Part shown: positions 17,661 through 64,000 of the stretch, piece after piece | Layout of the letters: each line of letters begins with the position of its first letter | Position numbering within the stretch: position 1 is the stretch's first letter | Assembly: GCA_032622095.1 (NCBI GenBank) | Contig: CP136061.1 | Span: forward strand, 251,233,582 to 251,297,581 | DNA: 64,000 nt | Direction: 5' to 3' | Origin: Siphonodentalium dalli | Lineage: Eukaryota; Mollusca; Scaphopoda; Gadilida; Siphonodentaliidae | The notes under the pieces: generated by a model | What the model was told of the DNA's origin: nothing | Seen by the model: the letters and a program-made list of their open reading frames with translations, nothing else | The model's database searches: none | Made by a program: the position numbers and the translations under genes

Positions 17661-19338
17661 CCGGTACTCAGTATTCACCCGCTCTGTTAACTGGTATCCA
17701 GGATTCATCCCTCAGTTAACTGGTATCCAGGATTCATCACTCTGTTAACTGGTATCCAGATTCATCACTCTGTTAACTGGTATCCAGGTTTCATCAATCC
17801 GTTAACTGGTACTTATTATTCACCCGCTCTGCTAACTGGTACCCAGGATTCATCGCTCCGTTAACTGGTATCCATGATTCATCACTCTGTTAACTGGTAT
17901 CCAGGTTTCATCCATCCGTTAACTGGTATTTAGTATTCATCCGCTATGTTAACTGGTATCCAGGATTCACCCGTTCTGTTAACTGGTATCCAGGATTCAT
18001 CCCTTCGTTAACTGGTATCCAGGATTCACCCGTTCTGTTAACTGGTACTCAGTATTCACCGGCTCTGTTAACTGGTATCCAGGATTCACCCGCTCTGTTA
18101 ACTGGTATCCAGGATTCATCCCTCCGTTAACTGGTATCCAGGATTCATCATGCTGTTAACTGGAATCCAGGATTCATCCATCTGTTAACTGGTATCCAGG
18201 ATTCACCACTATGTTAAGTGGTATCCAGGATTCATCCCTCCGTTAACTGCAATAACTGGTAGCCAGGATTCATCACTCTGTTAACTGGTATCCAGGATTC
18301 ATCCCTCCGTTAACTGGTATTAATTAATGATACACCCATCTGTTAACTGGTACTCATGATTAATCCCTCCATTAACTGGTACTCAGTATTAACCCGCTCT
18401 GTTAACTGGTATCCAGGATTCATCACTCTGTTAACTGGTATCCATGATTCATCACTCTGTTAACTGATATCCAGGTTTCATCCATCCGTTAACTGGTATT
18501 TAGTATTCACCCGCTATGTTAACTGGTATCCAGGATTCACCCGTTCTGTTAACTGGTATCCAGGATTCACCCCTTCGTTAACTGGTATCCAGGATTCACC
18601 CGTTCTGTTAACTGGTACTCAGTATTCACCGGCTCTGTTAACTGGTATCCAGGATTCACCCGCTCTGTTAACTGGTATCCAGGATTCATCCCTCCGTTAA
18701 CTGGTATCCAGGATTCATCATGCTGTTAACTGGTACTCAGTATTCACCGGCTCTGTTAACTGGTAGCCAGGATTTACCCGTTCTGTTAACTGGTATCCAG
18801 GATTAATCATGCTGTTAACTGGAAACCAGGTTTCACCCCTCCGTTAACTGGTATCCAGGATTCATCCCTCCGTTAACTGGTATCCAGGATGCATCATGCT
18901 GTTAACTGGAATCCAGGTTTCATCCATCTGTTAACTGGTATCCAGGATTCACCACTCTGTTAACTGGTATCCAGGATTCATCCCTCCGTTAACTGCAATA
19001 ACTGGTAGCCAGGATTCATCCCTCCGTTAACTGGTATCCAGGATTCATCCCTCCGTGAACTGGTATCCAGGATTCATCCCTCCGTTAACTGGTATCCAGG
19101 ATTCATCATGCTGTTAACTGGAATCCAGGTTTCATCCATCTGTTAACTGGTATCCAGGATTCACCACTCTGTTAACTGGTATCCAGGATTCATCCCTCCG
19201 TTAACTGGTATTAATTAATGATACACCCATCTGTTAACTGGTATTCATGATTAATCCCTCCGTTAACTGGTACTAAGTATTCATTCCTCCATTAACTGGT
19301 ATTATTATGCACCCATCTGTTAACTCAACGTAACTGGT
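17661..19338 (+). repeat. 29-30-bp minisatellite, ~56 units
   Basis: The unit is GTTAACTGGTATCCAGGATT plus a variable 9-10 bp tail (CATCCCTCC, CACCCGCTCT and others). GTTAAC is the HpaI palindrome and is nearly invariant. Blocks of several units recur in the same variant order about 600 bp apart (around 17880 and 18480; also 18890 and 19090), showing that expansion copied multi-unit blocks. Unit length alternates 29/30, so no frame is kept. Confidence 0.95.
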
Positions 19339-22091: not shown

Positions 22092-23690
22092 TATTCGGGT
22101 GGTAGTGGTGCTGTGTCTGCAGGTAATTATCCTTTTGGGTGATAGTGGTGTTGTTTCTGCAGGTAATTATCCTTTTGGGTGGTAGTGGTGCTGTTTCTGA
22201 AAGGTAATTATCCTTGTGTGTGATAGTGGTGCTGTTTCTGCAGGTAATTACACTTTCGGGTGGTAGTGGTGCTGTTTCTGCAGGTAATTACACTTTCGGG
22301 TGGTAGTGGTGCTGTTTCTGCAGGTAATTATCATTTCGGGTGGTATTGGTGCTGTGTCTGCAGGTAATTATCATTTCGGGTGGTATTGGTGCTGTGTCTG
22401 CAGGTAGTTATCCTTTCGGGTGGTAGTGGTGCTGTGTCTGCGGGTAATTATCCTTTCGGGTGATAGTGGTGCTGTTTCTGCAGGTAATTATCCTTTCGGG
22501 TGGTAGTGGTGCTGTGTCTGCAGGTAGTTATCCTTTCGGGTAGTAGTGGTGCTGTGTCTGCGGGTAATTATCCTTTCGGGTGATAGTGGTGCTGTTTCTG
22601 CAGGTAATTATCCTTTCGGGTGGTAGTGGTGCTGTTTCTGCAGGTAATTATCCTTTTGGGTGGTAGTGGTGCTGTTTCTGCAGGTAATTATCCTTTTGGG
22701 TGGTAGTGGTGCTGTTTCTGCAGGTAATTACACTTTCGGGTGGTAGTGGTGCTGTTTCTGCAGGTAATTATCCTTTTGGGTGGTAGTGGTGCTGTGTCTG
22801 CAGGTAATTATCCTTTTGGGTGGTAGTGGTGCTGTTTCTGCAGGTAATTACACTTTCGGGTGGTAGTGGTGCTGTTTCTGCAGGTAGTTATCCTTTCGGG
22901 TGATAGTTGTGCTGTTTCTGCAGGTAATTACACTTTCGGGTGGTAGTGGTGCTGTTTCTGCAGGTAATTATCATTTTGGGTGATAGTGGTGCTGTTTCTG
23001 CAGGTAATTACACTTTCGGGTGGTAGTGGTGCTGTTTCTGCAGGTAATTATCATTTTGGGTGATAGTGGTGCTGTTTCTGCAGGTAATTACACTTTCGGG
23101 TGGTAGTGGTGCTGTTTCTGCAGGTAATTACACTTTCGGGTGGTAGTGGTGCTGTTTCTGCAGGTAGTTATCCTTTCGGGTGATAGTTGTGCTGTTTCTG
23201 CAGGTAATTACACTTTCGGGTGGTAGTGGTGCTGTTTCTGCAGGTAATTATCATTTTGGGTGATAGTGGTGCTGTTTCTGCAGGTAATTACACTTTCGGG
23301 TGGTAGTGGTGCTGTTTCTGCAGGTAATTATCATTTTGGGTGATAGTGGTGCTGTTTCTGCAGGTAATTACACTTTCGGGTGGTAGTGGTGCTGTTTCTG
23401 CAGGTAATTATCCTTTTGGGTGGTAGTGGTGCTGTTACTGCAGGTAATTATCATTTCGGGTGATAGTGGTGCTGTGTCTGCAGGTAATTATCCTTTTGTG
23501 TGGTAGTGGTGCTGTTTCTGAGGTAATTATCAATTCGGGTGGTATTTGTGCTGTTTCTGCAGGTAATTATCCTTGTGTGTGATAGTGGTGCTGTTTCTGC
23601 AGGTAATTATCCTTTTGGGTGATAGTGGTGCTGTTTCTGCAGGTAGTTATCCTTTTGTGTGATAGTGATGCTGTGTCTGCAGGTAATGAT
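22092..23690 (+). repeat. 40-bp minisatellite, ~40 units, with abutted splice-like motif
   Basis: The unit is GGTGGTAGTGGTGCTGTTTC followed by TGCAGGTAATTA and a variable TCCTTTCGG/CACTTTCGG part. Variants (ATCC, ATCA, CACT) form repeated multi-unit blocks. Nearly every unit carries a pyrimidine-rich CTGTTTCTGCAG directly followed by GTAATT on the + strand, that is, a 3'-splice-site-like motif abutting a 5'-splice-site-like motif. There is no open frame of note. Confidence 0.95.
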
Positions 23691-24002
23691 CGTTTACATA
23701 TTTGTTATAACTGAATGAATCCGTTCAATACAGAATGGGTTCAACGCGTCATCTCGCCCTAAATATATCGTGAGGTATCGCGAGGTCAGCGGCTTAATAA
23801 CAGATAGAGGCGACACAGCTTTACTCCACGTTATTGAATAAGTCGATAAATTTACACTGTCTGAGCCAGCCCTTGTTTGAATGGTCCAAGCAATTAGGGT
23901 GTTATTCGTAGGATACTCGAGTTCAGAAGAGGAAGGGATCAAAGAAATCGCATATTCAAATGAGATAAAGATGAAGAGGCACTCCGTATTTCCCGAACAT
24001 CG

Positions 24003-25290
24003 GAAGTCGGTAGCCGAGAGGTAGCGCACTGGTCTCTCGTGCAATGCTAGCGGACCGGGGATCGCAACCTGGTCAGGGTATTCTGACAAAAATGAGAACT
24101 CGGTCAGATACCAAGTTTGTAAGGCTGAAAAGTTGCACGCTGTCCGATCGGGTGCGGACATTAATGGCTGACCCGTGTACACGAATCGGTGTGTGCATGT
24201 GCACGTTAAAGAGCGCTACTGGAGTCACCACATGGTTATAAAGTTACTCGGCCGTGGTAGCACCTACCGGAGTCACCACATGGTTATAAAGGTACTCGGC
24301 CGTGGTAGCACCTGCCGGAGTCATCACATGGTTATAAAGTTACTCGGCCGTGGTAGCACCTGCCGGAGTCATCACATGGTTATAAAGTTACTCGGCCGTG
24401 GTAGCACCTGCCGGAGTCATCACATGGTTATAAAGTTACTCGGCCGTGGTAGCACCTACTGGAGTCACCACATGGTTATAAAGTTACTCGGCCGTGGTAG
24501 CACCTGCCGGAGTCATCACATGGTTATAAAGTTACTCGGCCGTGGTAGCACCTGCCGGAGTCATCACATGGTTATAAAGTTACTCGGCCGTGGTAGCACC
24601 TACTGGAGTCACCACATGGTTATAAAGTTACTCGGCCGTGGTAGCACCTGCCGGAGTCATCACATGGTTATAAAGTTACTCGGCCGTGGTAGCACCTGCC
24701 GGAGTCATCACATGGTTATAAAGTTACTCGGCCGTGGTAGCACCTGCCGGAGTCATCACATGGTTATAAAGTTACTCGGCCGTGGTAGCACCTGCCGGAG
24801 TCATCACATGGTTATAAAGTTACTCGGCCGTGGTAGCACCTGCCGGAGTCATCACATGGTTATAAAGTTACTCGGCCGTGGTAGCACCTACTGGAGTCAC
24901 CACATGGTTATAAAGTTACTCGGCCGTGGTAGCACCTGCCGGAGTCATCACATGGTTATAAAGTTACTCGGCCGTGGTAGCACCTGCCGGAGTCATCACA
25001 TGGTTATAAAGTTACTCGGCCGTGGTAGCACCTGCCGGAGTCATCACATGGTTATAAAGTTACTCGGCCGTGGTAGCACCTGCCGGAGTCAGCACATGGT
25101 TATAAAGTTACTCGGACGTGGTAGCACCTGCCGGAGTCATCACATGGTTATAAAGTTACTCGGCCGTGGTAGCACCTACCGGAGTCACCACATGGTTATA
25201 AAGTTACTCGGTCGTGGTAGCACCTGGACCGGCTCATAATTGTCAGTACAATTTATGACAGTGAGCTGTAATGAGAAGAAGAAGAACAAA
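24003..25290 (+). mobile_element. tRNA-derived SINE, body expanded by a minisatellite
   Basis: The head resembles a tRNA promoter. TAGCCGAGAGG at 24011-24021 fits the Pol III A-box pattern TRGYNNARNNG exactly. GGATCGCAACC at 24059-24069 fits the B box with one mismatch. The gap is 37 bp. After about 150 bp of body comes TGTGCACGTTAAAGAGC and then the 48-bp array. DNA beyond the array (about 25236-25290) ends in AATGAGAAGAAGAAGAAC, a plausible SINE 3' tail. The SINE therefore appears to span both sides of the array. The family is not named; target duplications were not found. Confidence 0.6.
24222..25233 (+). repeat. 48-bp minisatellite, 21 units, inside the SINE
   Basis: The unit starts GGAGTCA(C/T)CACATGGTTA and includes ACTCGGCCGTGGTAGCACC. 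Units are almost identical; the recurring variants are CTACTGG, CTACCGG and CTGCCGG. Because 48 is a multiple of three, one plus frame stays open for 354 codons as a 16-residue repeat, but this follows from the period and is not evidence of a protein. Confidence 0.95.
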
Positions 25291-26735: not shown

Positions 26736-28440
26736 CTTAACTTAAGTGAAAAAAAAATTAACAAGGCATAAACTTAACACCACGCACTCTGACTGACTTC
26801 AGAGCAGCAATTCGTCGACATATCAGCACCAATAGTATTATCATTCTGCTTATATAGGCCTCATCTGGGAAGTATCTGTAGTCTCAAATTAACATTGATT
26901 TTTAGTTACTTTTCCCTTCTTAGAAGTTTCTATATCCCCTAGTTTGCAGAAGATACAATGCATAATCAAAGTATCTAATGGGTGAACATCACCAACTTCA
27001 CTGGGGAACCTCAATAGGATCCTAGGTCCCCCGTAGTAGTTGAGGCTTAATCTGAATGAAGTTCTCGGAGTGTGAATTTGGTGATGCTAGCCTGCTGTGC
27101 AGGATAGTGTCACTAAATTCATTCTCTGGGGAGATCATTCTGCAAATGACATACACAATATTGCAACTTGCTCGCCAGCGAATATATAGTCATTAACCCA
27201 TTCTGTATTAAATAATCATTGACGAGTACATGTAGTTCTCTCAGGAAATATTAAGATAATAAGTTCAACTAGAAAGGTATTTTATTAGACTGATAGGAAT
27301 ATTATCAGAAATGTAGATGTAGCATATAGCAATAGTTTTTATTTGAAACATCTCATTATTGGAGAATTATTGATAATAACAACAAAGTTTTACATGTAGG
27401 CCCTAATTGCTGATTGACATTTCACATGTGCCAATTATAGAATAATAATTATATAATATAGAAATGAGCGGTGCCCGTGTATCTGCATGGTATGCGTCCA
27501 TGTCTTGCCATCAGTCTGTGTGTGCATCTTAAATGTTTGTTGTCCGGATGATAACTTGAACAGTATTCAGTAACACAATTTGATGAAACTTAGCACATGG
27601 AAGTGGAAGATTTGGATCCATCCAACCATTTCTGACGGAGTTATGTCCCTTTTCGAATTAGAATTTGATGATTATTTTGTTGTCTGGATGTTAACTCAAA
27701 TTATGATTATCCGATACCTTTCAAATTTACTGTGTGGATTAATCAAACAAAGCCACCTTATTTGGGAACTTGTGGCCTTTTATTAACCCTTCTTTGGCTG
27801 GAGCTTCCTAAAAGTTTGCGAAAACCATGTGTGCCAATGCATTCTCTTAATACATGTGAGTCTCTCATAGGAGATGCATATTAAGAGAATACATTATCCC
27901 AACAATATTTACCATGACTGGTATATGCGAGGCTGCCTATGGGAGACTCGCATATATAAGAGAATGCCTGCCACAGGATCTTTTATTCTGCATCTGTTGT
28001 GCCGATCCCATCATGGAAGGGATATTAAAGCCACAGCGCGGTTTGTGCTCCATGATAGAAATAATATTATTAGCTTCAGATAAATATCTTAACTACCTTT
28101 CTACGAGCATTCTGTAACCCAAAAAGACGCATTGAAGTAATGAAAAATACAACTGTAGTGTGAATACGGTGTTGGGGTCCCAAACACAAAACAGCCATTT
28201 ACAAGAAATGGACCAGAAAAGAACGTTCCATGGTACTCTACTCCTGATATGGTAGCAATAAAGAGCGTTTATCTTACTTCTGGCGAAAGTTGAAAATGGC
28301 TGTGACTCTGGCAAAGTGTTTTTCAGAGCATATGAAGCCGGTACTTCAATAGTTTGTTTACTTTCGACATATCGTATGAACAAATTTGGCAGTTCGAATG
28401 AGCCATGTACGTTTAAGGCCCCGAGTCCTTTAATGAGATA
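26736..28440. other. No recognisable gene; several old repeat remnants
   Basis: About 26970-27150 is a decayed relative of the fold-back MITE at 34778 (shared GTGAATTTGGTGATGCTAGC and CATTCTGCAAATG). About 27540-27740 is a relative of the repeat at 20740. About 27835-27975 holds two decayed copies of the hairpin module found in the piggyBac-type MITEs (CAATGCATTCTCTTA and ATATAAGAGAATGC ends). No coding region is supported. Confidence 0.5.
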
Positions 28441-28457
28441 TTAATTTTTATTTGTAG
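28441..28457 (+). promoter_or_regulatory. Probable 3' splice site of the zinc-finger exon
   Basis: A pyrimidine-rich TTTTTATTTGTAG ends at 28457, just before the first zinc-finger cysteine codon. The zinc-finger frame continues upstream only briefly and without protein character, so an intron boundary here is the simplest reading. This is inference from motif and position. Confidence 0.45.
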
Positions 28458-28900
28458 ATGTCCAACGTGTCAGGTCAGTTTCAAAGACCGGTTATCCCTG
28501 AAACGTCATCAGTTGCTGCATATAGACAAGAAACATGTCAAATTACGTATATTTTGTGACTTTGTGTGCCGGCGATCTGTTTCATTGACATGTCATTTGG
28601 AAAGATATCACCCATCTAGCGGAGCTGTCTTCAAATGTGATGTGTATCCATTCGAGATGATTGACGAAAATATATTTAGTAGACAATTTCATTCTGAAAA
28701 TTCACATAGGAATGTAGTTGGAATCTAAATGCAGAGAGGTCAGATGAAACCATGTTAACAGATACCTCTGATATTCAAAATAAGAATGAACGACAATGTG
28801 ACCTTCAAAATAAGGATGAGAAACACTTTGACATTCCCTGCTCTAAGCATGTCAGCTATGAAACCGTGGATCAGCATTGTTACCAGAATAGTCAGATAAA
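28458..28900 (+). pseudogene. C2H2 zinc-finger exon, 5' part, split by a transposon
   Basis: The frame from 28459 has one complete C2H2 finger: Cys codons at 28459 and 28468, a 12-residue gap, His at 28507 and 28519. A second, degenerate finger has Cys at 28555 and 28567 and His at 28594 and 28609, with a shortened centre. A third (FKCDVYPF start) has lost its second Cys. That frame stops at 28726. The next frame is open from about 28719 to 28900 with a hydrophilic, D/N/Q-rich sequence, so a one-base shift near 28700-28725 probably links them. C2H2 fingers normally bind DNA or RNA in the nucleus. The coding sequence is cut at 28900 by the element at 28901-33306 and resumes at 33312. A decayed paralogue is as likely as a working gene. 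Confidence 0.5.
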
Positions 28901-29349
28901 CACAGTGGATCAACGGACACGAACCAAAACCGGAAGTCGAAGATTTCGAGGTGGAGAAATATCTGTCGACAAATATTTGTTGACATGTTTTGACGGTTTT
29001 TTGGGAAAATAAACGCTTGGATAGCATATCTGACCAACTGAAGGTGAGTGAATATTTCTTCGCTAATGTTCGGACACCGACGATCAATTTAAGTCGGTTG
29101 TCATTGTTCGATCGCGGAAAAAATGTCATTTAATCATCGCCGCGAGACGATTTCTTCCCCAAAATATCCCAGAAAATCATACTTTTCACATTCATCGCAG
29201 ACAGCTGTCGCAACAACCTATATACCGGTCGAAAGGCCCGTTTTCCCCCCACAAATGCATATTTTGAGTATTTTCACGGACTGTCTCAAAATTCCAAATT
29301 TCATCTTTTGATGCAAGTACCCACCTCGAAAATACTGTCCGGTTAGTCC
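28901..29349 (+). repeat. Left terminal inverted repeat of the Transib-like element
   Basis: It pairs with 32861-33306. By eye there are only scattered substitutions plus a longer C tract in the partner. The arm contains GACAAATATTTGTTGACA. An AAG|GTGAGT splice-donor-like site lies near 29041 (GTTAGT in the other arm), so the insertion could have brought a usable donor into the host exon. Confidence 0.9.
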
Positions 29350-29737
29350 TGTACACCCCGGAATTTAGTTGCAATCCACCAGACCCGGCGGACAGTTTTT
29401 GTTGTTCAATCAAGAGTCGAAATGGATTAGTTGGTTGGCTGCCTTTCGTTAACAGTGGCACGTTTTTGGGCAACTGCTATTCTGTTGCAACTATAGTATA
29501 CTGATCAAGTTTAGTTACCGAGTACAGTTTGCAATTTGTTCTCATATATTCGTTCAGATCGTGTAAGGTCATTAACCAATGAATCATTTATGGAAATATT
29601 GTTAGAACAAGAATATTACAATACCCTCCATGACCAAGGCCGGTAGCAACAGGATTGTTTTGATGGTGGGGGGTGTAGATGTATTTTCCAATAGTTTGAT
29701 ATTTCAGCCAGTATATAGCGTGAAATTTGATACTTAA
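29350..29737. other. Interior of the Transib-like element, left part
   Basis: No recognisable coding sequence. A 93-codon minus frame spans part of the arm and this segment but has no features I recognise. Confidence 0.4.
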
Positions 29738-30329
29738 AGGGGTACTGTACGCCATTTTCAATAAATTCCCGGTGATAACAACGATCTAGTATCGATACTA
29801 TATAGAAATATAAGTAATTTGAGTCGAAGATGTATTCTGTAAACGCTCAGGTTAATAGGCTATCTTAAAATTTAATAATTTAAAAGTTAATAATTTAATA
29901 TAAATTGATTTTATGGCTCCAGCCATAAAATGGCGTCTCTTAAAATTGGAATTTCCGTGTACAAAACGTAATCAAATTATAATTGAGGGATACTGGATTA
30001 ATAAAACAATTGCACACACGATCGTTTGAAACATTATGCTTATACGGGGAGAAAACCCAAGCCACTCATTGACTAGTGACCATACACTAACTTAAATGAG
30101 TATATGGGACTACTAAGCATATACTATAATGTTTATTTGATTCATTTGGTTGAAAACTGTACAAAAATTACTCGACAACGACAATTTGTATTTTTGCATT
30201 CCGGTAAATTTGCCATCCGTAACAATACTTCGTACTCAACATACTTTCAAAAAATGGAAAAGTTGTTACCTTATTCTCCGACTCGGGGATTATAGAAACC
30301 AACAACAACATCTTGGGTACAGTACCCCT
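29738..30329. mobile_element. TTAA-flanked MITE nested in the Transib-like element
   Basis: TTAA at 29734-29737 and 30330-30333 flank inverted ends AGGGGTACTGTAC / GTACAGTACCCCT. A TTAA target duplication is typical of piggyBac and Kolobok DNA transposons; the AGGGG terminus does not fit the usual piggyBac CCC start. About 592 bp with no transposase. The short TIR limits confidence. Confidence 0.6.
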
Positions 30330-30596
30330 TTAAAAAACAATTAAAATTCGATTAATTTCAGAAAAAAACAAATCGGGACCCATGGCTGTTCTTTTTCATT
30401 ATGGCCACTTTCGGGACCCACCACCCGAGTTTTTATTACGATTGTATAAAGTTTTAACTTCGTTTTCGGGTATATATACATCCCTTTATTTTTATGTTTT
30501 AAACTACAGGCACCCACCCATATTTCGGAGAATTTTCGCTAATATTACATATTATAGCATAGCCATCAAATATGCAGATGTTTATTTCTATTTCTA

Positions 30597-31468
30597 TGAG
30601 AGGCCAAATTCACATTTCATATTTAATTGCAGTTAAGCAATAGCACTTAAGCATAATTATTTGCGATTAAGCGCAATTCATGGTTATACTGTATGTAACT
30701 ATGTACCCCTGGTGAATAAATAGGTGTATCTATAACTAAACCTGAACTCATATTGACATATCACCTCCTTGTTTTCATTGCTTTGGATAGTTGGGATTGT
30801 GAACTAGCCTAAATTCTTTATCAAAATGGGTGACTCGCGACAGTATTACCTTCTGTTTTAGTCGAGTCGAGGAACCAATCCATCAAAGCTCAAGTGTGAT
30901 CAGATATCGATTATTGAAGTTTGTTATTTCAATTGATTGCTGCACAGAAACACGCCGTGAAAAGGGTGGTTTCGGTCAAAATTGCGGATGAAGATGGATA
31001 ACTCTAAAACAAGTGGTAATACGGTAAAATTTCGTGATACTTTAGTAATTATACGGCCATATTTTGTTGAACAAAATGTTTATAAATCACACGTTTTTGG
31101 GAAATTTGATACCATAGTTGAAGTGGTCAGCATTATTTTTTGCAGTTAATCGATTCTGATAACTAAAGCTTATATTGAAGAAATATTGTTGTTGTTGTTG
31201 TTGTATCTTTATAATATGGGTCTTTCTGATCGGATTGAGGACCTTTAGTTTAAATTAGCCAAATGCAGATACACCCGGTCATGCTAATAGTTAGGTTATA
31301 TGGGTAGTTACACTTACTCTCAAGCAACTCATAGCGCTTAATCGCAATTAATTGCACTTAAGCGCCATTCATTTCAATTATGCGCACATGCCATATGTGT
31401 GCTTTAGCGCGATATGTGGTATATGCGCTTAAGCGCAATTCATTATTAAATGTGAATTTGACCTCCCA
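30597..31468. mobile_element. TA-flanked inverted-repeat element nested in the Transib-like element
   Basis: The ends TGAGAGGCCAAATTCACATT and the complement TGGGAGGTCAAATTCACATT lie next to TA on both sides. Inside each end are CTTAAGCGCAATT-type motifs (30630-30680 and 31325-31445). About 872 bp, no transposase visible. TA duplications would fit Tc1/mariner-like families. Confidence 0.55.
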
Positions 31469-32860
31469 TACAGTTATTTTTTTGTCTATATATATGAACG
31501 AGTAGGGTCTGTCTGCATGTCTTCTGTCCGCTTAAATTTGAATATATACGCGACCATTTGCGTTAAAAACTTCCCAACCAAATTATCCAGTGTGTGAATC
31601 AATGTGGAAACAATTAATTATGGCGCGATTTGAATACAACAGGACAAAAATCACGTGCCTATATATTTACAAAAGTAACTTGCACCTGGTTCCACATTCA
31701 GTTGTACGCTATAGATTGGAATTTTACCCGCCGCTATATACATGTAGGAAACACAACACTTCTACATTAATGGACAGCCAAGGTGGGATTAAGAATACAA
31801 CAACTCGAAAGAACACTGGAGTTTTCATGATGATGTTTCTATTCTCTATATCAACCGAGAATACCAATATTTCGTATAGTATTGTATAGTATAGTATTGT
31901 ATAGTATTTTATTATAAATAATTTTTAAATTTTTTATTTTCAATAATTTTATTTTCAAACATTCATTCGGGTGTTGTAAAATCCCATCGTCGATTGCCTC
32001 AGCGAAGCCGCAAGCCTTTGCCTCACAGTGGTTACATATATGAAGGCAGGCATGCGATCCTCTCGCCAGTATAGCACCTGGAATTATAAAATAATATCGC
32101 TTAGTGGACTTGAACTTAAGCTAATATTAGTAACATATATAGCTGTACAACCCGCCGACTGTATGTTTTAGTCCCCTCCTCATTATTGTTTTAACCATTG
32201 CTGAATATTGAAAACAATAATTTTCTAAGTCGAAAAATGTCATATAACTCCACACAAAAAGGTCTGACATATTTCATAATCATATATGTACGCATGTTCC
32301 CATGGTACTAAATATATATATGCCAAGCCAAAAAACAAATGACCGCAAAACTTAGGAATAAAAACTCGGAAAATTGCATCCACGAAAGGACGAGCAAGCT
32401 GCTTCCTGTATAACCCCACAAGTTGTGGGCCACAACTCGTTGCGAGTGTATAATCAAATATAAAGGGTAAAAATCGGCACACCGCTGCATTTTTCTGAAA
32501 AAAGTTGGATGTAAATCATTTTTTTTTATGTCGGCCTGCCGAGAGTGATGACAAGTCGGAGTTAACAATATGACATACATCAAAAGTTATATGTTTACCA
32601 AACATGTACTTCGTAGTTGGATTTCAGTTACAGGTTAAAGTTCAGTTATATATATAATTCACCGCCTGGATGTTATGTTGTACCAGGAGACATATACAAC
32701 ATTATGAACACACAGAACCATTGTGGCCACGCAAAAGTCAAATGAAACGCCCATCATCTGCGGCAAAATTGCGATTTCGACCAGAAATTGAAGATGGCAG
32801 ACCTCAGCAAAATCACGACTAAGCGGACAGATTTTTTACAACTAATGATTAAATTTTTCG
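31469..32860. other. Interior of the Transib-like element, right part
   Basis: AT-rich sequence with a GTATAGTATT-type tract near 31870-31905. Open frames (up to 99 codons) show no domain I recognise. This and 29350-29737 are where a decayed transposase would be expected; I could not find one. Confidence 0.4.
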
Positions 32861-33306
32861 GGACTAACCGGACAGTATTTTCGAGGTGGGTACCTACATC
32901 AATTTGGAATTTTGAGACAGTCCGTGAAAATACTCAAAATATGCATTTGTGGGGGGGGGGGGGAAACAGGCATTTCGATCGGTGTATAGGTTGTTGCGAC
33001 AGTTGTCTGCGATGAATGTGAAAAGTATGATTTTCTGGGATATTTTGGGGAAGAAATCGTCTCGCGGCGATGATTAAATGACATTTTTTCCGCGATCGAA
33101 CAATGACAACCGACTTAAATTGATCGTCGGTGTCCGAACATTAGCGAAGAAATATTCACTAACCTTCAGTTGGTCAGATATGCTATCCAAGCGTTTATTT
33201 TCCCAAAAAACCGTCAAAAAATGTCAACAAATATTTGTCGACAGATATTTCTCCACCTCGAAATCTACGACTTCCGGTTTTGGTTCGTGTCCGTTGATCC
33301 ACTGTG
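32861..33306 (-). repeat. Right terminal inverted repeat of the Transib-like element
   Basis: Near-identical inverted partner of 28901-29349, ending CCACTGTG at 33306. It has a 13-base G run at 32951-32963 where the left arm has a shorter C run; this is the main length difference. Confidence 0.9.
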
Positions 33307-33311
33307 ATAAA

Positions 33312-33465
33312 GTCCCATTATGTTAAAACATCAAGGAATGTGGATGCTGAGGGCGTCGGATGGAAGCGACTTCAGAATATCTTACAGACTGAAGATCCCG
33401 AATCATTATGCGTGACCTGGGATGATTCAGTATTAAGTGGTCTCACTATTCAGGACTCAGAATGA
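33312..33465 (+). pseudogene. 3' part of the interrupted zinc-finger exon, with stop
   Basis: This frame runs open from the right-hand ATAAA to a TGA at 33463-33465, about 51 codons after the join. The sequence has protein character and includes VDAEGVGWKRLQNILQ and TEDPESLCVTWDDS. Removing 28901-33306 and one ATAAA puts codons 28893-28898 directly in frame with it, so it reads as the C-terminal end of the same exon. I do not recognise the C-terminal domain. The product would carry at most one to two working fingers, and the apparent frameshift near 28710 argues for a pseudogene or a young null allele. Confidence 0.5.
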
Positions 33466-46840: not shown

Positions 46841-48822
46841 CAGACCCCATACAGCCCGTTAAATCATGTACTGTTACCATAACTACAGACCTCATACAGC
46901 CCGTTAAATCATGTACTGTTACCATAAATACAGACCTCATACAGCCCGTTAAATCATGTACTGTTACCATAACTACAGACCTCATACAGCCCGTTAAATC
47001 ATGTACTGTTACCATAAATACAGACCTCATACAGTCCGTTAAATCATGTACTGTTACCATAACTACAGACCTCATACAGTCCGTTAAATCATGTACTGTT
47101 ACCATAACTACAGACCTCATACAGCCCGTTAAATCATGTACTGTTACCATAACTACAGACCTCATACAGTCCGTTAAATCATGTACTGTTACCATAACTA
47201 CAGACCTCATACAGCCCGTTAAATCATGTACTGTTACCATAACTACAGACCTCATACAGCCCGTTAAATCATGTACTGTTACCATAACTACAGACCTCAT
47301 ACAGCCCGTTAAATCATGTACTGTTACCATAATTACAGACCTCATACAGCCCGTTAAATCATGTACTGTTACCATAACTACAGACCTCATACAACCCGTT
47401 AAATCATGTACTGTTACCATAACTACAGACCTCATACAGCCCGTTAAATCATGTACTGTTACCATAACTACAGACCTCATACAGCCCGTTAAATCATGTA
47501 CTGTTACCATAACTACAGACCTCATACAGCCCGTTAAATCATGTACTGTTACCATAACTACAGACCTCATACAGCCCGTTAAATCATGTACTGTTACCAT
47601 AACTACAGACCTCATACAACCCGTTAAATCATGTACTGTTACCATAACTACAGACCTCATACAGCCCGTTAAATCATGTACTGTTACCATAACTACAGAC
47701 CTCATACAGCCCGTTAAATCATGTACTGTGACCATAACTACAGACCTCACACAGCCCGTTAAATCATGTACTGTTACCATAACTACAGACCTCATACAGC
47801 CCGTTAAATCATGCACTGTGACCATAACTACAGACCTCATACAGCCCGTTAAATCATGTACTGTTACCATAACTACAGACCTCACACAGCCCGTTAAATC
47901 ATGTACTGTTACCATAACTACAGACCTCATACAGCCCGTTAAATCATGTACTGTTACCATAACTACAGACCTCATACAACCCGTTAAATCATGTACTGTT
48001 ACCATAACTACAGACCTCATACAGCCCGTTAAATCATGTACTGTTACCATAACTACAGACCTCATACAGCCCGTTAAATCATGTACTGTGACCATAACTA
48101 CATACCTCATACAGCCCGTTAAATCATGTACTGTTACCATAACTACAGACCTCATACAGCCCGTTAAATCATGCACTGTGACCATAACTACAGACCTCAT
48201 ACAGCCCGTTAAATCATGTACTGTTACCATAACTACAGACCTCATACAGCCCGTTAAACATGTACTGTTACCATAACTACAGACCTCATACAGCCCGTTA
48301 AATCATGTACTGTTACCATAACTACATACCTCATACAGCTCGTTAAATCATGCACTGTGACCATAACTACAGACCTCATACAGCCCGTTAAATCATGTAC
48401 TGATACCATAACTACAGACCTCATACAGCCCGTTAAATCATGCACTGTGACCATACCTACAGACCTCATACAGCCCGTTAAATCATGTACTGTTACCATA
48501 ACTACAGACCTCATACAGCCCGTTAAATCATGTACTGTTACCATAACTACATACCTCATACAGCCCGTTAAATCATGTACTGTTACCATAACTACAGACC
48601 TCATACAGCCCGTTAAATCATGTACTGTTACCATAACTACAGACCTCATACAGCCCGTTAAATCATGCACTGCGACCATAACTACAGACCTCATACAGCC
48701 CGTTAAATCATGCACTGTGACCATAACTACAGACCTCATACAGCCCGTTAAATCATGCACTGGGACCATAACTACAGACCTCATACAGCCCGTTAAATCA
48801 TGTACTGTTACCATAACTACAG
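46841..48822. repeat. 45-bp minisatellite, ~44 units
   Basis: The unit is CAGACCTCATACAGCCCGTT plus AAATCATGTACTGTTACCAT plus AACTA. Because 45 is a multiple of three, frames stay open on both strands for hundreds of codons, the longest a 473-codon minus frame of a 15-residue repeat. A one-base deletion near 48256 breaks these frames. Variants GCACTGTGACC, CATACCTC and CAACCCG mark unit lineages. There is no start context, splice signal or non-repeat coding to support a protein. Confidence 0.95.
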
Positions 48823-55799: not shown

Positions 55800-57915
55800 C
55801 ATATGTATCTGTATCTGTAGGATGTCCGTGCAGGGGCCAATGCTGACCTTAGGCGCACGGGGAGGAAGGTGTCTGTGTTTTTATAGTTGATCCTGGAGGC
55901 TGCGACGGGTGGAATTCTCCAGGAACAGTGATCTTGCGGAGTGCTCTTAAGAATTCCTCTGGATCACTGGCGCACACAACAGAGTCATCAAGTTTGTTCC
56001 ATTCGATGGTCGTTTTAGCGAAAAAGGAGTGTTTGTATTGGTCGCGGCTAGTACGCCTGAGTTGAAACGGCCATTGGTTATTACAAAAAGTCCGGGAAAG
56101 ATGTTGCAGTGATTTTGCTGCTTTTCTTTTTTGGTGTCAGGAAGTCATCTACATTGAGAGCTGGCACCATCCCCTTCACTATCTTATAGAACTGGGTTAG
56201 ATTAATCTCTCGACGTCTTTCTTGAAGTGATGGTAATTCCAGTTCATTTAGCATGGCTGTTACGGAGACGCCTATTCGTTTGTAGTTGTTTTTGATGAAT
56301 CTGGCGCCCCGTCATTGTACTTTCTCTAATGATGTTATGTCTTTCTGTTCATGTGGGTCCCAAACTGCAGCTCCATGTTCTAGTATCTGCCTGACTAGGG
56401 CGATGTAGGCTATTTTCTTGCACTTCTCCGGTGCGTGTCGAATGTTTCTGCGGAGGAGTCCCAGAGTGCAGTTTGCTTTTTTTGTTATTTTCCTCACATG
56501 TGCTGACCATGATAAATCGTCGGTGATGGTTAATCCAAGGTATTGTGTATCATGCACGGATTGAAGGATGTCGTTATTCAGTCCATACATGTGCGACGAT
56601 TTATTCCGAGTGCTCATGACGAAGCATTTTGATGTGTTAAACGCATTCCCCATGCACTTTGCCCATTTTTCAAGTGAGTTTAGGTCATCTTGGAGGATCT
56701 TGTGGTCTTCCTGCCTTGTGATGTTGCGGTATATGAGGCAGTCATCTCCGAAAAGTCGTATTTGGGATTTGACGCAGTTTGGTAGGTCATTGGCGTGTAT
56801 GAGGAACAGCAGAGGTCCTAGTACAGTGCCCTGAGGAACACCTGATTCAACTGGTACATACGAGGAGTAGGTTCCGCCTTTTGGTCAGGAAGGATGTCAA
56901 CCAATTTTGGATGTTATCTTGGATCCCGTAGTTTTCAATTTTCTGCAGTAGTTTGTTGTGTGGAACAGTATGGAAAGCTTTTGAGAAATCGAGGATTGCT
57001 ACATCTGTCTGCATTTTCTTGTCATGTGAAGCTAGTAGGTCCTCAGTTGTTGTTAAGAGCTGTGTGACGCACGAGTAGCCTTTTGTGAATCCATGCTTTA
57101 GCTTTGTTAGGATGTTATGTTTGTCCAGGTGGTCCATTATGTGGCGGAAAACTATATGTTGCATTATTTTGCAGGAAACTGATGTTAATGATACGGGACG
57201 ATAATTTTCTGGTTTGTGGACATCTCCTTTTTTGTATACGGGTGCAATGTTTGCATCTCTCCAATCCTGTGGTAGTTCACCAGACTTCAGGGATTTGTAG
57301 AAAATGTATGTCAGCCCTGGTGCTATTGATTCTGCACATATTTTCAGGACCTTGTTGGGGATGTCATCTGGTCCGGAGGCCTTTCCTGGTTTGACGTCTT
57401 TTAGAAGTTTTTCCACGCCCTGTCTCGATATTTCCAGGTCTGCTGTTGTTGGTTTGTTGTGTGGTAGTTTTATATCGGCGTGTTTTCTGTCCTTTGTGAA
57501 TACTGATAGAAATTGGTTGTTCAAAATTTCGGCCTTCCGTTCTGGGTCATTGGTGAGGCTACCGTTTTCTTTCAATGGGGCTATCCCGATATTGTACCTT
57601 CTTCGTGCTTTCAGGTAGTTCCAAAAAGGTTTGGTGTTATTTTCCTCTTCTACTATGGTGTTGACATGATTCCATTCAGCTTGCCTCAGCTCTCGCCGAC
57701 ATATTTTGTTTATGTTCAATATATTTTGTCCATGATTTTGTTTCTTTCGCTCGTTGGTGGAGTCTGGCTTTTCTCATCAGCATTGTTATCATTCTCCGAT
57801 TTAGCCAGTGCAGCTGATTTTACCGTTTTCTAGGGATGTGCTTGTCCATAAGTTTACGGATTCCATCTCTGAACGACTCCCATATGGTATTTACGCTGGA
57901 ATCTACAGGAAGTGT
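55800..57915 (-). pseudogene. 5'-truncated LINE (CR1/L2/Jockey-type) reverse transcriptase
   Basis: Non-LTR reverse transcriptase, which copies element RNA at the nicked target. From the 5' side: SVNTIWESFRDGIRKLMDKH and WLNRRMITMLMRKARLHQ (linker after the lost endonuclease), then an open 290-codon stretch (57719-56847) with KASGPDDIPNKVLK, NYRPVSLTS, HGFTKG and LDFSKAFHTVPH (the usual AFD is AFH). Next come SGVPQGTVLGPLLFL and FGDD (56741-56752), where most relatives have FADD; both Asp are present. The thumb and C-terminal part continues via LGLTITDDLSW and FAKTTIEWNKL to a stop near 55849. Breaks: stop at 57820-57822, frameshift near 57715, small deletion with frameshift near 56850, stop near 56309, frameshift near 56125. 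It has no endonuclease or ORF1, so it is dead. The GATACAGATACAGATAC-like end near 55805 may be the 3' tail. Confidence 0.85.
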
Positions 57916-61876: not shown

Positions 61877-64000
61877 AAGCCTCCATAGAAAACATCGTCT
61901 GTACTACGCCCAATTATAAATATTTACATCTCAATTCGGGACGCAACTATCGACGATAAACTAACACAAATGATTTCGCCATCGAGAGTCATTGCAATTA
62001 ATTCATATATAAGATTGGTGGTGTGTATTGTCAATTCTGATTAATAATCGTAAAAAATAACTACTTTGAGCAAGATTATTCTCACTTTCTATTTGACAAC
62101 CCTACCGGAGTGTTTCACATCACTTTAAGATTAGTCTCACTTTCTATTTGATCACCCTACCGGAGTGTTTCACATCACTTTAAGATTATTCTCACACTCT
62201 ATTTGATCACCCTACCGGGGTATTTCACATCACTTTAAGATTATTATCCATTTCTATTTGATCACCCTACCGGAGTGTTTCACATCACTTTAAGATTATT
62301 CTCACTTTCTATTTGATCACCCTACCGGAGTGTTTCACATCACTTTAAGATTATTATCACTTTCTATTTGATCACCCTACCGGAGTGTTTCACATCACTT
62401 TAAGATTATTCTCACTTTCTATTTGATCACCCTACCGGGGTCTTTCACATCAATTTATGATTATTATCCATTTCTATTTGATCACCTTACCGGAGTGTTT
62501 CACATTACTTTAATGTTGTACCAGGCAGAAATTTTCAACTGTTGACAATTTTGACAAAAGTTGGAAGGAGGGAAAACACAAATTATTTCGCCATCGAGAG
62601 TCATTGCATTTAATTCATATATAAGATTTGTGGTGTGTATTGTCAATTCTGATTAATAATCGTAAACAAATAACTACTTTGAGCAAGATTATTCTCACTT
62701 TCTATTTGATCACCCTACCGGAGTGTTTCACACCACTTTAAGATTATTCTCACTTTCTATTTGATCGCCCCACCGGAGTGTTTCACATCACTTTAAGATT
62801 ATTCTCACTTTCTATTTTGATCACCATACCGGAGTGTTTCACATCACTTTAAGATTATTCTCACTTTCTATTTGATCGCCCCACCGGAGTGTTTCAGATC
62901 ACTTTAAGATTATTCTCACTTTCTATTTGATCACCCTACCGGAGTGTTTCACATCATATTGAGATTATTCTCACTTTCTATTTGATCACCATACCGGAGT
63001 GTTTCAGATCACTTTAAGATTATTCTCACTTTCTATTTTGATCACCCTACCGGAGTGTTTCACATCACTTTAAGATCATTCTCACTTTCTATTTTGATCA
63101 CCCCACCGGAGTGTTTCAGATCACTTTAAGATTATTCTCACTTTCTATTTGATCACCATACCGGGGTCTTTCACATCACTTTATGATTATTATCCATTTC
63201 TATTTGATCACCCTACCGGAGTGTTTCAGATCACTTTAAGATTATTCTCACTTTCTATTTGATCACCCTACCGGGGTCTTTCACATCACTTTATGATTAT
63301 TCCCACTTTCTATTTGATCACCCTACCGGAGTGTTTCACATCATATTGAGATTATTCTCACTTTCTATTTGATCACCCTACCGGAGTGTTTCACATCACT
63401 TTAAGATCATTCTCACTTTCTATTTTGATCACCCCACCGGAGTGTTTCACATCACTTTAAGATTATTATCACTTTCTATTTGACCACCCTACCAGAGTGT
63501 TTCACAACACTTTAAGATTATTCCCACTTTCTATTTTATCACCATACCGGAGTGTTTCACATCACTTTAAGATTATTCTCACTTTCTATGTGATCACCCT
63601 ACCGGGGTCTTTCACATCACTTTATGAGTATTATCCATTTCTATTTGATCACCTTACCGGAGTGTTTCACATTACTTTAATGTTGTACCAGGCAGAAATT
63701 TTCAACTGTTGACAATTTTGACAAAAGTTGGAAGGAGGGAAAACACAAATGATTTCGCCATCGAGAGTCATTGCATTTAATTCATATATAAGATTTGTGG
63801 TGTGTATTGTCAATTCTGATTAATAATCGTAAACAAATAACTACTTTGAGCAAGATTATTCTGACTTTCTATTTGATCACCCTACCGGAGTGTTTCACAC
63901 CACTTTAAGATTATTCTCACCTTCTATTTGATCACCCTACCGGAGTGTTTCACATCACTTTAAGATTATTCTCACTTTCTATTTGATCACCCTACCGGAG
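61877..64000 (+). repeat. 55-bp minisatellite in an ~1.17-kb higher-order array
   Basis: The unit is CACTTTCTATTTGATCACCC plus TACCGGAGTGTTTCACATCA plus CTTTAAGATTATTCT, more than thirty copies. The run is interrupted by a unique block beginning AATGTTGTACCAGGCAGAAA and ending ACTACTTTGAGCAAG (about 62510-62690 and 63680-63855), giving a larger period of about 1,168 bp. The GTGTTTCAC(A/T)TCACTTTAA part also occurs just before the 3' hairpin of the Helitron-like element (9363-9391). The array continues past the window. Confidence 0.95.

What the first reader, a model, noticed from the sequence alone, without database searches (positions are those of the whole stretch)
28896..33311. RAG/Transib-type transposon with the V(D)J heptamer at both ends
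Seen: a 4,406-bp element with ~447-bp inverted ends that both begin CACAGTG, flanked by a 5-bp direct repeat ATAAA. Known: 5-bp duplications and CACWRTG termini define Transib and RAG transposons, and CACAGTG is the vertebrate RSS heptamer. An 8-of-9 nonamer match (ACCAAAACC) sits 15 bp inward on both sides. Inferred: a non-autonomous member of the RAG/Transib superfamily in an invertebrate, with ends unusually like a recombination signal. Arms this long would be unusual for Transib.
Basis: partly seen in the sequence, partly recalled or inferred. Interest (0 to 1): 0.92.

Follow-up and report, generated by a model that had tools for sequence, protein, structure and literature searches.

The report
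Non-autonomous transposon with V(D)J-like ends
This is one copy of a large, recently mobile family of jumping DNA in which no mobility gene of its own was found; its ends look like the signal our immune system's RAG enzyme cuts, but the enzyme that moves it was not found.

Summary
A 4,406-bp element (28901-33306) has ~449-bp inverted ends starting CACAGTG, between 5-bp repeats ATAAA. Three uninterrupted relatives of the site carry ATAAA once in gap-free 389-bp alignments, so borders and duplication are exact. The genome (2.23 Gb) holds 573 exact copies of the first 20 bases. Of 50 copies with both flanks read, 39 have exact 5-bp duplications and 8 more match at 4 of 5 bases. It is a real cut-and-paste family; one sampled stretch is 99% identical to another copy. 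No copy examined encodes a transposase of its own; one holds a nested Harbinger-type gene. CACAGTG ends plus 5-bp duplications fit RAG/Transib. Against it: duplications are AT-rich (22% GC, flanks 46%), whereas RAG, Transib and ProtoRAG favour GC; the A-rich block has a 15-bp spacer at both ends, not 12/23; RAG1, Transib and ProtoRAG queries found nothing in an insensitive genome search. hAT5 elements also make 5-bp duplications. Verdict: a non-autonomous family, probably (about 0.6) moved by a RAG/Transib-type transposase, source unknown.

The parts
28896..28900 (.). left target-site duplication ATAAA
   Evidence: empty sites carry it once
28901..29349 (+). left terminal inverted repeat, ~449 bp
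28901..28907 (+). terminal heptamer CACAGTG
28923..28931 (+). nonamer-like ACCAAAACC, 15-bp spacer
   Evidence: 8 of 9; P about 0.005
28929..28937 (+). ACCGGAAGT, kept in the consensus of both subfamilies; looks like an ETS-factor site (recalled motif, not tested)
29350..32860 (.). interior, no transposase coding found
29738..30329 (.). nested 592-bp element, TIR AGGGGTACTGTAC, TTAA duplications 29734-29737 and 30330-30333; not part of the element proper
   Evidence: L009 has one TTAA and no insert
32861..33306 (-). right terminal inverted repeat
33276..33284 (-). nonamer-like ACCAAAACC, 15-bp spacer
   Evidence: sequence; arms identical here
33300..33306 (-). terminal heptamer CACAGTG
33307..33311 (.). 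right target-site duplication ATAAA

Best explanation
A non-autonomous cut-and-paste DNA transposon. A transposase supplied in trans binds the outer ~40 bp of each arm, cuts just outside CACAGTG, and joins the element to an AT-rich, weakly palindromic target (C-ATWAT-G) with a 5-bp stagger, giving 5-bp duplications. Shown: exact borders, 5-bp duplication, empty sites, hundreds of ends, target preference, no own transposase in the copies read. Inferred: that the transposase is of the RAG1/Transib type, that it binds these ~40 bp, and that its source is a rare, lost or undetected autonomous relative.
For: Empty sites at three loci, 389 bp without gaps, 96.7-96.9%. 573 exact 20-base ends, reversed control 0. 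39 of 50 copies with exact 5-bp repeats; flanks paired at random have a longest match of 5 bases in 1.5%. Terminus CACAGTG fits CACWRTG; 5-bp duplications as in Transib hopper and transib2 (PMC3276498), ProtoRAG (PMC8289069) and protostome RAGL (PMC7204232). Position 17 almost fixed: 2 places have the first 16 bases with another base next, against at least 573 with the usual one. One sampled stretch (L052) is 99.1% identical to L009 over 701 bp, which implies recent movement.
Against: No own transposase between the ends in the copies examined; RAG1, Transib and ProtoRAG queries silent in the genome. One copy (L021) does hold a DDE_Tnp_4 (Harbinger-type) frame between its ends, but in a 2.85-kb insert with a 3-bp overlap at its borders that other copies lack, so I read it as nested. 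Duplications are AT-rich, unlike the GC bias of known RAG/Transib. Ends do not match the protostome RAGL consensus beyond CAC (8 of 17; 79% of random CAC-sequences do as well). Spacer 15/15. 450-bp arms are long. 3 of 50 copies have no matching flanks.
Confidence: 0.6

Rival explanations
1. A non-autonomous hAT element of the hAT5 group, moved by a hAT transposase that makes 5-bp duplications.
For: hAT5 makes 5-bp duplications (PMC12730594, passage). hAT transposases are abundant in this genome (1,918 first-look candidates, 150 scored, all listed rows over the cut-off). Duplication consensus ATWAT has T at 2 and A at 4, like a shortened hAT motif NTNNNNAN (given for hobo in PMC3276498); CACAG fits the hAT end YANNG (recalled).
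Against: CACAGTG exactly terminal is a further coincidence under hAT; 450-bp arms are unusual for hAT (recalled). Of 208 known ends and the 150 listed hAT places the nearest two are 9,956 bp apart and the next 35.9 kb; in the nearest case the family match stops about 2.8 kb into the fetched stretch, 6.6 kb before the hAT frame.
Confidence: 0.2
2. Another CMC-type (CACTA/Mirage/Chapaev-like) lineage or an undescribed superfamily with CA..TG ends and a 5-bp stagger, heptamer resemblance by convergence or deep kinship.
For: CMCT lineages share 5'-CA..TG-3' ends in most cases and make 2 to 5 bp duplications (PMC12730594, passage). AT-rich target and silent RAG1/Transib searches fit.
Against: Known CACTA, Mirage and Chapaev make 2-4 bp (recalled); no transposase found either.
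Confidence: 0.18
3. A Polinton/Maverick-type element, suggested by the long arms and by a 24-kb copy that holds a retroviral-type integrase frame.
For: C5:42493477-42517698 has our ends, TSD ACACT, and an rve integrase match (E 1.5e-12) with a chromodomain match just under its cut-off inside.
Against: Those genes are nested: L009-type sequence resumes on both sides of them. Ends CA..TG and a 5-bp duplication do not fit (Polinton features recalled).
Confidence: 0.01
4. Chance inverted repeat or assembly artefact.
For: None.
Against: Hundreds of ends, empty sites, 5-bp repeats.
Confidence: 0.005

Closest known systems
Transib transposons (hopper, transib2, HzTransib)
   Same: CACWRTG-type terminus (from the finding and recall); 5-bp duplication; palindromic target flanked by C and G (CCANTGG for hopper and transib2 in PMC3276498; here, weakly, C-ATWAT-G)
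   Different: target centre AT-rich here; no Transib-like protein found; 450-bp arms; A-rich block at 15-bp spacing on both sides, while HzTransib ends have little or no nonamer likeness (PMC8289069, passage)
ProtoRAG (lancelet RAG transposon)
   Same: 5-bp duplications, CAC-initial heptamer-like end; full-length TIRs with promoter activity and a YY1 site in ProtoRAG (PMC7481187, passages), compare ACCGGAAGT here
   Different: ProtoRAG end is CACTATG with 27/31 spacing and GC-biased duplications (PMC8289069, passages); no RAG1L found here, RAG2L not sought
Protostome RAGL transposons
   Same: CAC start, 5-bp duplications, some non-autonomous copies known (PMC7204232, one section read)
   Different: consensus CACTWMCAAACKTYKBB not matched beyond CAC
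hAT5
   Same: 5-bp duplications
   Different: no hAT gene found within the ends; termini compared only from memory

Membership tests
RAG/Transib superfamily | terminal CAC, heptamer CACWRTG | tested here: met
   the 20-base key used to find copies fixes the first 20 bases, so their identity among copies is by selection
RAG/Transib superfamily | 5-bp target-site duplication | tested here: met
   39 of 50 exact, 8 more 4 of 5, 3 no match; empty sites
RAG/Transib superfamily | GC-biased duplications (usual, not strictly defining) | tested here: not met
   22% GC in 36 distinct sites against 46% in the 14 flanking bases
RAG/Transib superfamily | RAG1-like DDE transposase between the ends | tested here: inconclusive
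   none found; no positive control for the genome search
RSS-like ends (a subset of Transib; not required of the superfamily) | nonamer at 12 or 23 bp | tested here: not met
   8 of 9 match at 15 bp on both sides
RAGL transposons | RAG2L beside RAG1L | not tested
   no RAG2 search was run
hAT5 | 5-bp duplication | tested here: met
hAT5 | hAT transposase between the ends | tested here: inconclusive
   150 of 1,918 candidates scored; none within 9.9 kb of the 208 ends known here
CMCT clade in general | 5'-CA..TG-3' ends, 2 to 5 bp duplications | tested here: met
   definition from PMC12730594
Polinton/Maverick | integrase and other genes as the element's own cargo between its ends | tested here: not met
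   in the one copy with an integrase the genes are a nested insertion

The most novel reading that the evidence does not exclude
A transposase lineage, either a RAG/Transib branch that switched to AT-rich targets or a separate superfamily, that cuts at the exact V(D)J heptamer CACAGTG and was active recently in this animal; its ~450-bp arms would serve as promoter and binding site for a gene-less family of hundreds of copies.
Probability: 0.25. Interest if true: 0.65.

Novelty: new member of a known kind. Interest (0 to 1): 0.4.

Why it matters
A young family with exact V(D)J heptamer ends gives natural substrates for asking what RAG/Transib-type transposases need beyond CAC, and whether a GC-rich target is a rule or a habit. 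If the transposase proves unrelated to RAG1, CACAGTG ends plus a 5-bp stagger would stop being a safe fingerprint of RAG ancestry. As it stands, a gene-less DNA transposon family in an animal genome is ordinary.

Tried and rejected
Autonomous partner: sought among odd-sized pairs (2.9, 4.65, 6.1, 6.8, 8.8, 15 and 24 kb), copies with another base at position 21, and single ends. Where the extra length was traced it came from nested insertions (a Harbinger-type DDE_Tnp_4 element in L021; LTR-type reverse-transcriptase frames in the single-end stretch L108 and the 15-kb copy L115/L116; a segment with a 260-aa frame of no Pfam match and a Polinton-like nest in the 24-kb copy), or from segments present in some copies and missing in others; L026 and L027 (6.8 kb) hold a region of internal repeats. 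The extra length of L020 (6.1 kb) was not identified. None of these held a transposase that could be read as the family's own.

Protein route: PF12940, a recalled 74-aa and a recalled 518-aa Transib-like sequence (22, 24), ProtoRAG 203 aa (40), mouse RAG1 core 409 aa (59), HzTransib 472 aa (73): no hit in G000. The tool offers no control genome for these, so absence is not shown.

Literature: the end sequence CACAGTGGATC is in 22 papers, of which 8 were listed, none on transposons by title (listing only). 'Transib' with 'long terminal inverted repeats' or CACAGTG (3 papers) and with 'MITE', '5 bp TSD', 'long TIR' (8 listed of 9) gave no description of such a family in the listings. Repbase could not be searched. 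The 20-base end is absent from the viral contig collection.

Conservation of the outer 40 bp: positions 21-40 are 17 of 20 identical between subfamily consensuses against 316 of 406 in the arm beyond base 41, only a mild excess; positions 1-20 were the search key. The case for constraint rests on position 17.
Full report
What was checked. The window element runs from 28901 to 33306, with arms of about 449 bp, CACAGTG at both tips and ATAAA on both sides. The first 20 bases of the end occur only at these two places in the window. The A-rich block ACCAAAACC lies 15 bp from the heptamer at both ends; an 8-of-9 match to the RSS nonamer somewhere in positions 8-40 has P about 0.005 by chance.

A family. 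In the genome that holds the window (2.23 Gb, 9 contigs) the first 20 bases occur 573 times, against 0 for the reversed control; the first 100 places were listed. They make 31 facing pairs: 15 are 3.7-3.95 kb long, six 4.6-4.7 kb, three 2.9 kb and seven other sizes from 3.3 to 8.8 kb, the window copy among them. The window copy is 4.4 kb because a 592-bp element with TTAA duplications sits in it. 109 of the ends have a base other than G at position 21; 93 of the 100 listed have A. On 21 copies, the two group consensuses are identical at 38 of the outer 41 positions and at 316 of the next 406; the first 20 are identical by selection. Only 2 places have the first 16 bases followed by a base other than A, so base 17 is nearly fixed. 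One sampled stretch is 99.1% identical to L009 over 701 bp, so movement was recent.

Duplications and empty sites. I read both flanks of 50 copies: window, L009-L012, L014-L037, 19 pairs fetched as end stretches, the 24-kb copy and L041. Copies of which I held one end only (L013, L038-L040, L044 and the single ends) are not counted. 39 have an exact 5-bp repeat; of the 11 others, 8 match at 4 of 5 bases and 3 do not match (L024, L033, L041). The longest repeat is 5 bp in 38 copies and 7 bp in one; flanks paired at random have a longest match of 5 bases in 1.5%. Some copies are duplicates of one insertion (L026/L027; L028-L031 with L035 and L037; L084-L087; L019 and L090/L091); the 39 reduce to 36 distinct sites. 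The window insertion lies in an open frame that belongs to a repeated sequence (152 matches). Three uninterrupted relatives align over 389 bp without gaps at 96.7-96.9% and carry ATAAA once.

Target preference. In the 36 sites the duplication is 22% GC and the 14 flanking bases 46% GC; the symmetrised motif is C-A-T-W-A-T-G, each outer base at 46%. The Drosophila Transib elements hopper and transib2 prefer CCANTGG, and hopper was the one GC-rich exception among the Drosophila TIR families of that study (PMC3276498, passages). ProtoRAG, Transib and vertebrate RAG duplications lean to GC (PMC8289069, passage). This family weakly shares the C...G frame but not the GC-rich centre.

Transposase. 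Six-frame tblastn and a small profile built from HzTransib, a recalled Transib-like sequence and mouse RAG1 found nothing better than E about 0.7 in the window and all loci held at the time; in interiors fetched later the best profile match had E 0.83 and the best tblastn match E 1.0. Open frames were listed for L009, the window element and L014-L025 and some later loci; L001-L008 and L010-L012 were covered by the homology search only. L021 holds a DDE_Tnp_4 (Harbinger-type) frame (E 3.5e-10) in a 2.85-kb insert whose borders overlap by 3 bp on copies that lack it, so it is nested. Of 20 single ends sampled 500-1200 bp inward, 12 are covered by known interiors over at least 593 of 701 bases and 8 are not (L047, L048, L053, L054, L061, L063, L065, L066; L053 holds a run of N). 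Six of the 8 (all but L048 and L053) were followed for 6-8 kb: an LTR-type element (L108), tandem repeats (L111, L112), family sequence again (L111, L113), and two stretches with nothing recognised (L109, L110). Whole-genome queries with PF12940, Transib, ProtoRAG and RAG1 proteins returned no match; the tool warns that an empty answer without a control shows nothing. A hAT family search scored 150 of 1,918 candidates; the nearest of these to any of the 208 ends known here is 9,956 bp away and beyond the element that the end belongs to.

How it likely works. The anatomy is that of a cut-and-paste element moved in trans. Shown: exact ends, 5-bp stagger, AT-rich target, no own enzyme in the copies read. 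Inferred: a RAG1/Transib-type transposase, because CACWRTG at the tip with a 5-bp duplication is the mark of that group. hAT5 (5-bp duplications) and other CMC-type lineages (CA..TG ends, 2 to 5 bp) stay open (PMC12730594, passages). Long arms with ACCGGAAGT (ETS-like, from memory) recall the full-length ProtoRAG ends, which act as promoters and bind YY1 (PMC7481187, passages); this is a lead only.

Verdict. The RAG/Transib label is plausible, not proven; one usual feature (GC-biased target) fails and the decisive one (transposase) is unresolved. Ordinary as a gene-less transposon family, of moderate interest for its exact V(D)J heptamer.

Noticed in passing
window 29738-30329: 592-bp nested element with TIR AGGGGTACTGTAC and TTAA duplications; the same place in L009 has a single TTAA. 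Piggybac- or Kolobok-like by its TTAA (group recalled).
   Followed up: partly
window 28710-28900 and 33312-33462: The element interrupts an open frame of 114 codons just downstream of C2H2 zinc-finger matches under their cut-offs (28417-28725); the frame belongs to a repeated sequence with 152 matches in the genome, many of which end about 4 codons past the insertion point.
   Followed up: partly
G000 C5:42493477-42517698 (L042, L045, L046, L043): A copy of the family carrying a nested, partly inverted Polinton-like insertion: an rve integrase match with a chromodomain match just under cut-off, frames that read as histone H4 by eye (Pfam Histone under its cut-off) and arrays of a ~277-bp repeat.
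   Followed up: partly
L028-L031, L035, L037: Copies of different internal length share the same flanks, so one insertion seems to have been amplified as part of a larger repeat and shortened differently; the ~318-bp forms keep only about 23 bp of one arm.
   Followed up: partly
L013 (C4:124076016-124086015) at 320 and 7924: Two ends of the family point away from each other 7.6 kb apart and both abut TCATT, as if two copies arose from one insertion by duplication, or the pair moved together.
   Followed up: no
window 56847-57773 (-): Reverse transcriptase fragment (RVT_1, E 6e-16); a second frame lies at 56312-56884.
   Followed up: no
window 17669-19302, 22094-23695, 24221-25226, 46841-48822, 62072-63680: Long minisatellite arrays with 29-, 40-, 48-, 45- and 55-bp units.
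   Followed up: no
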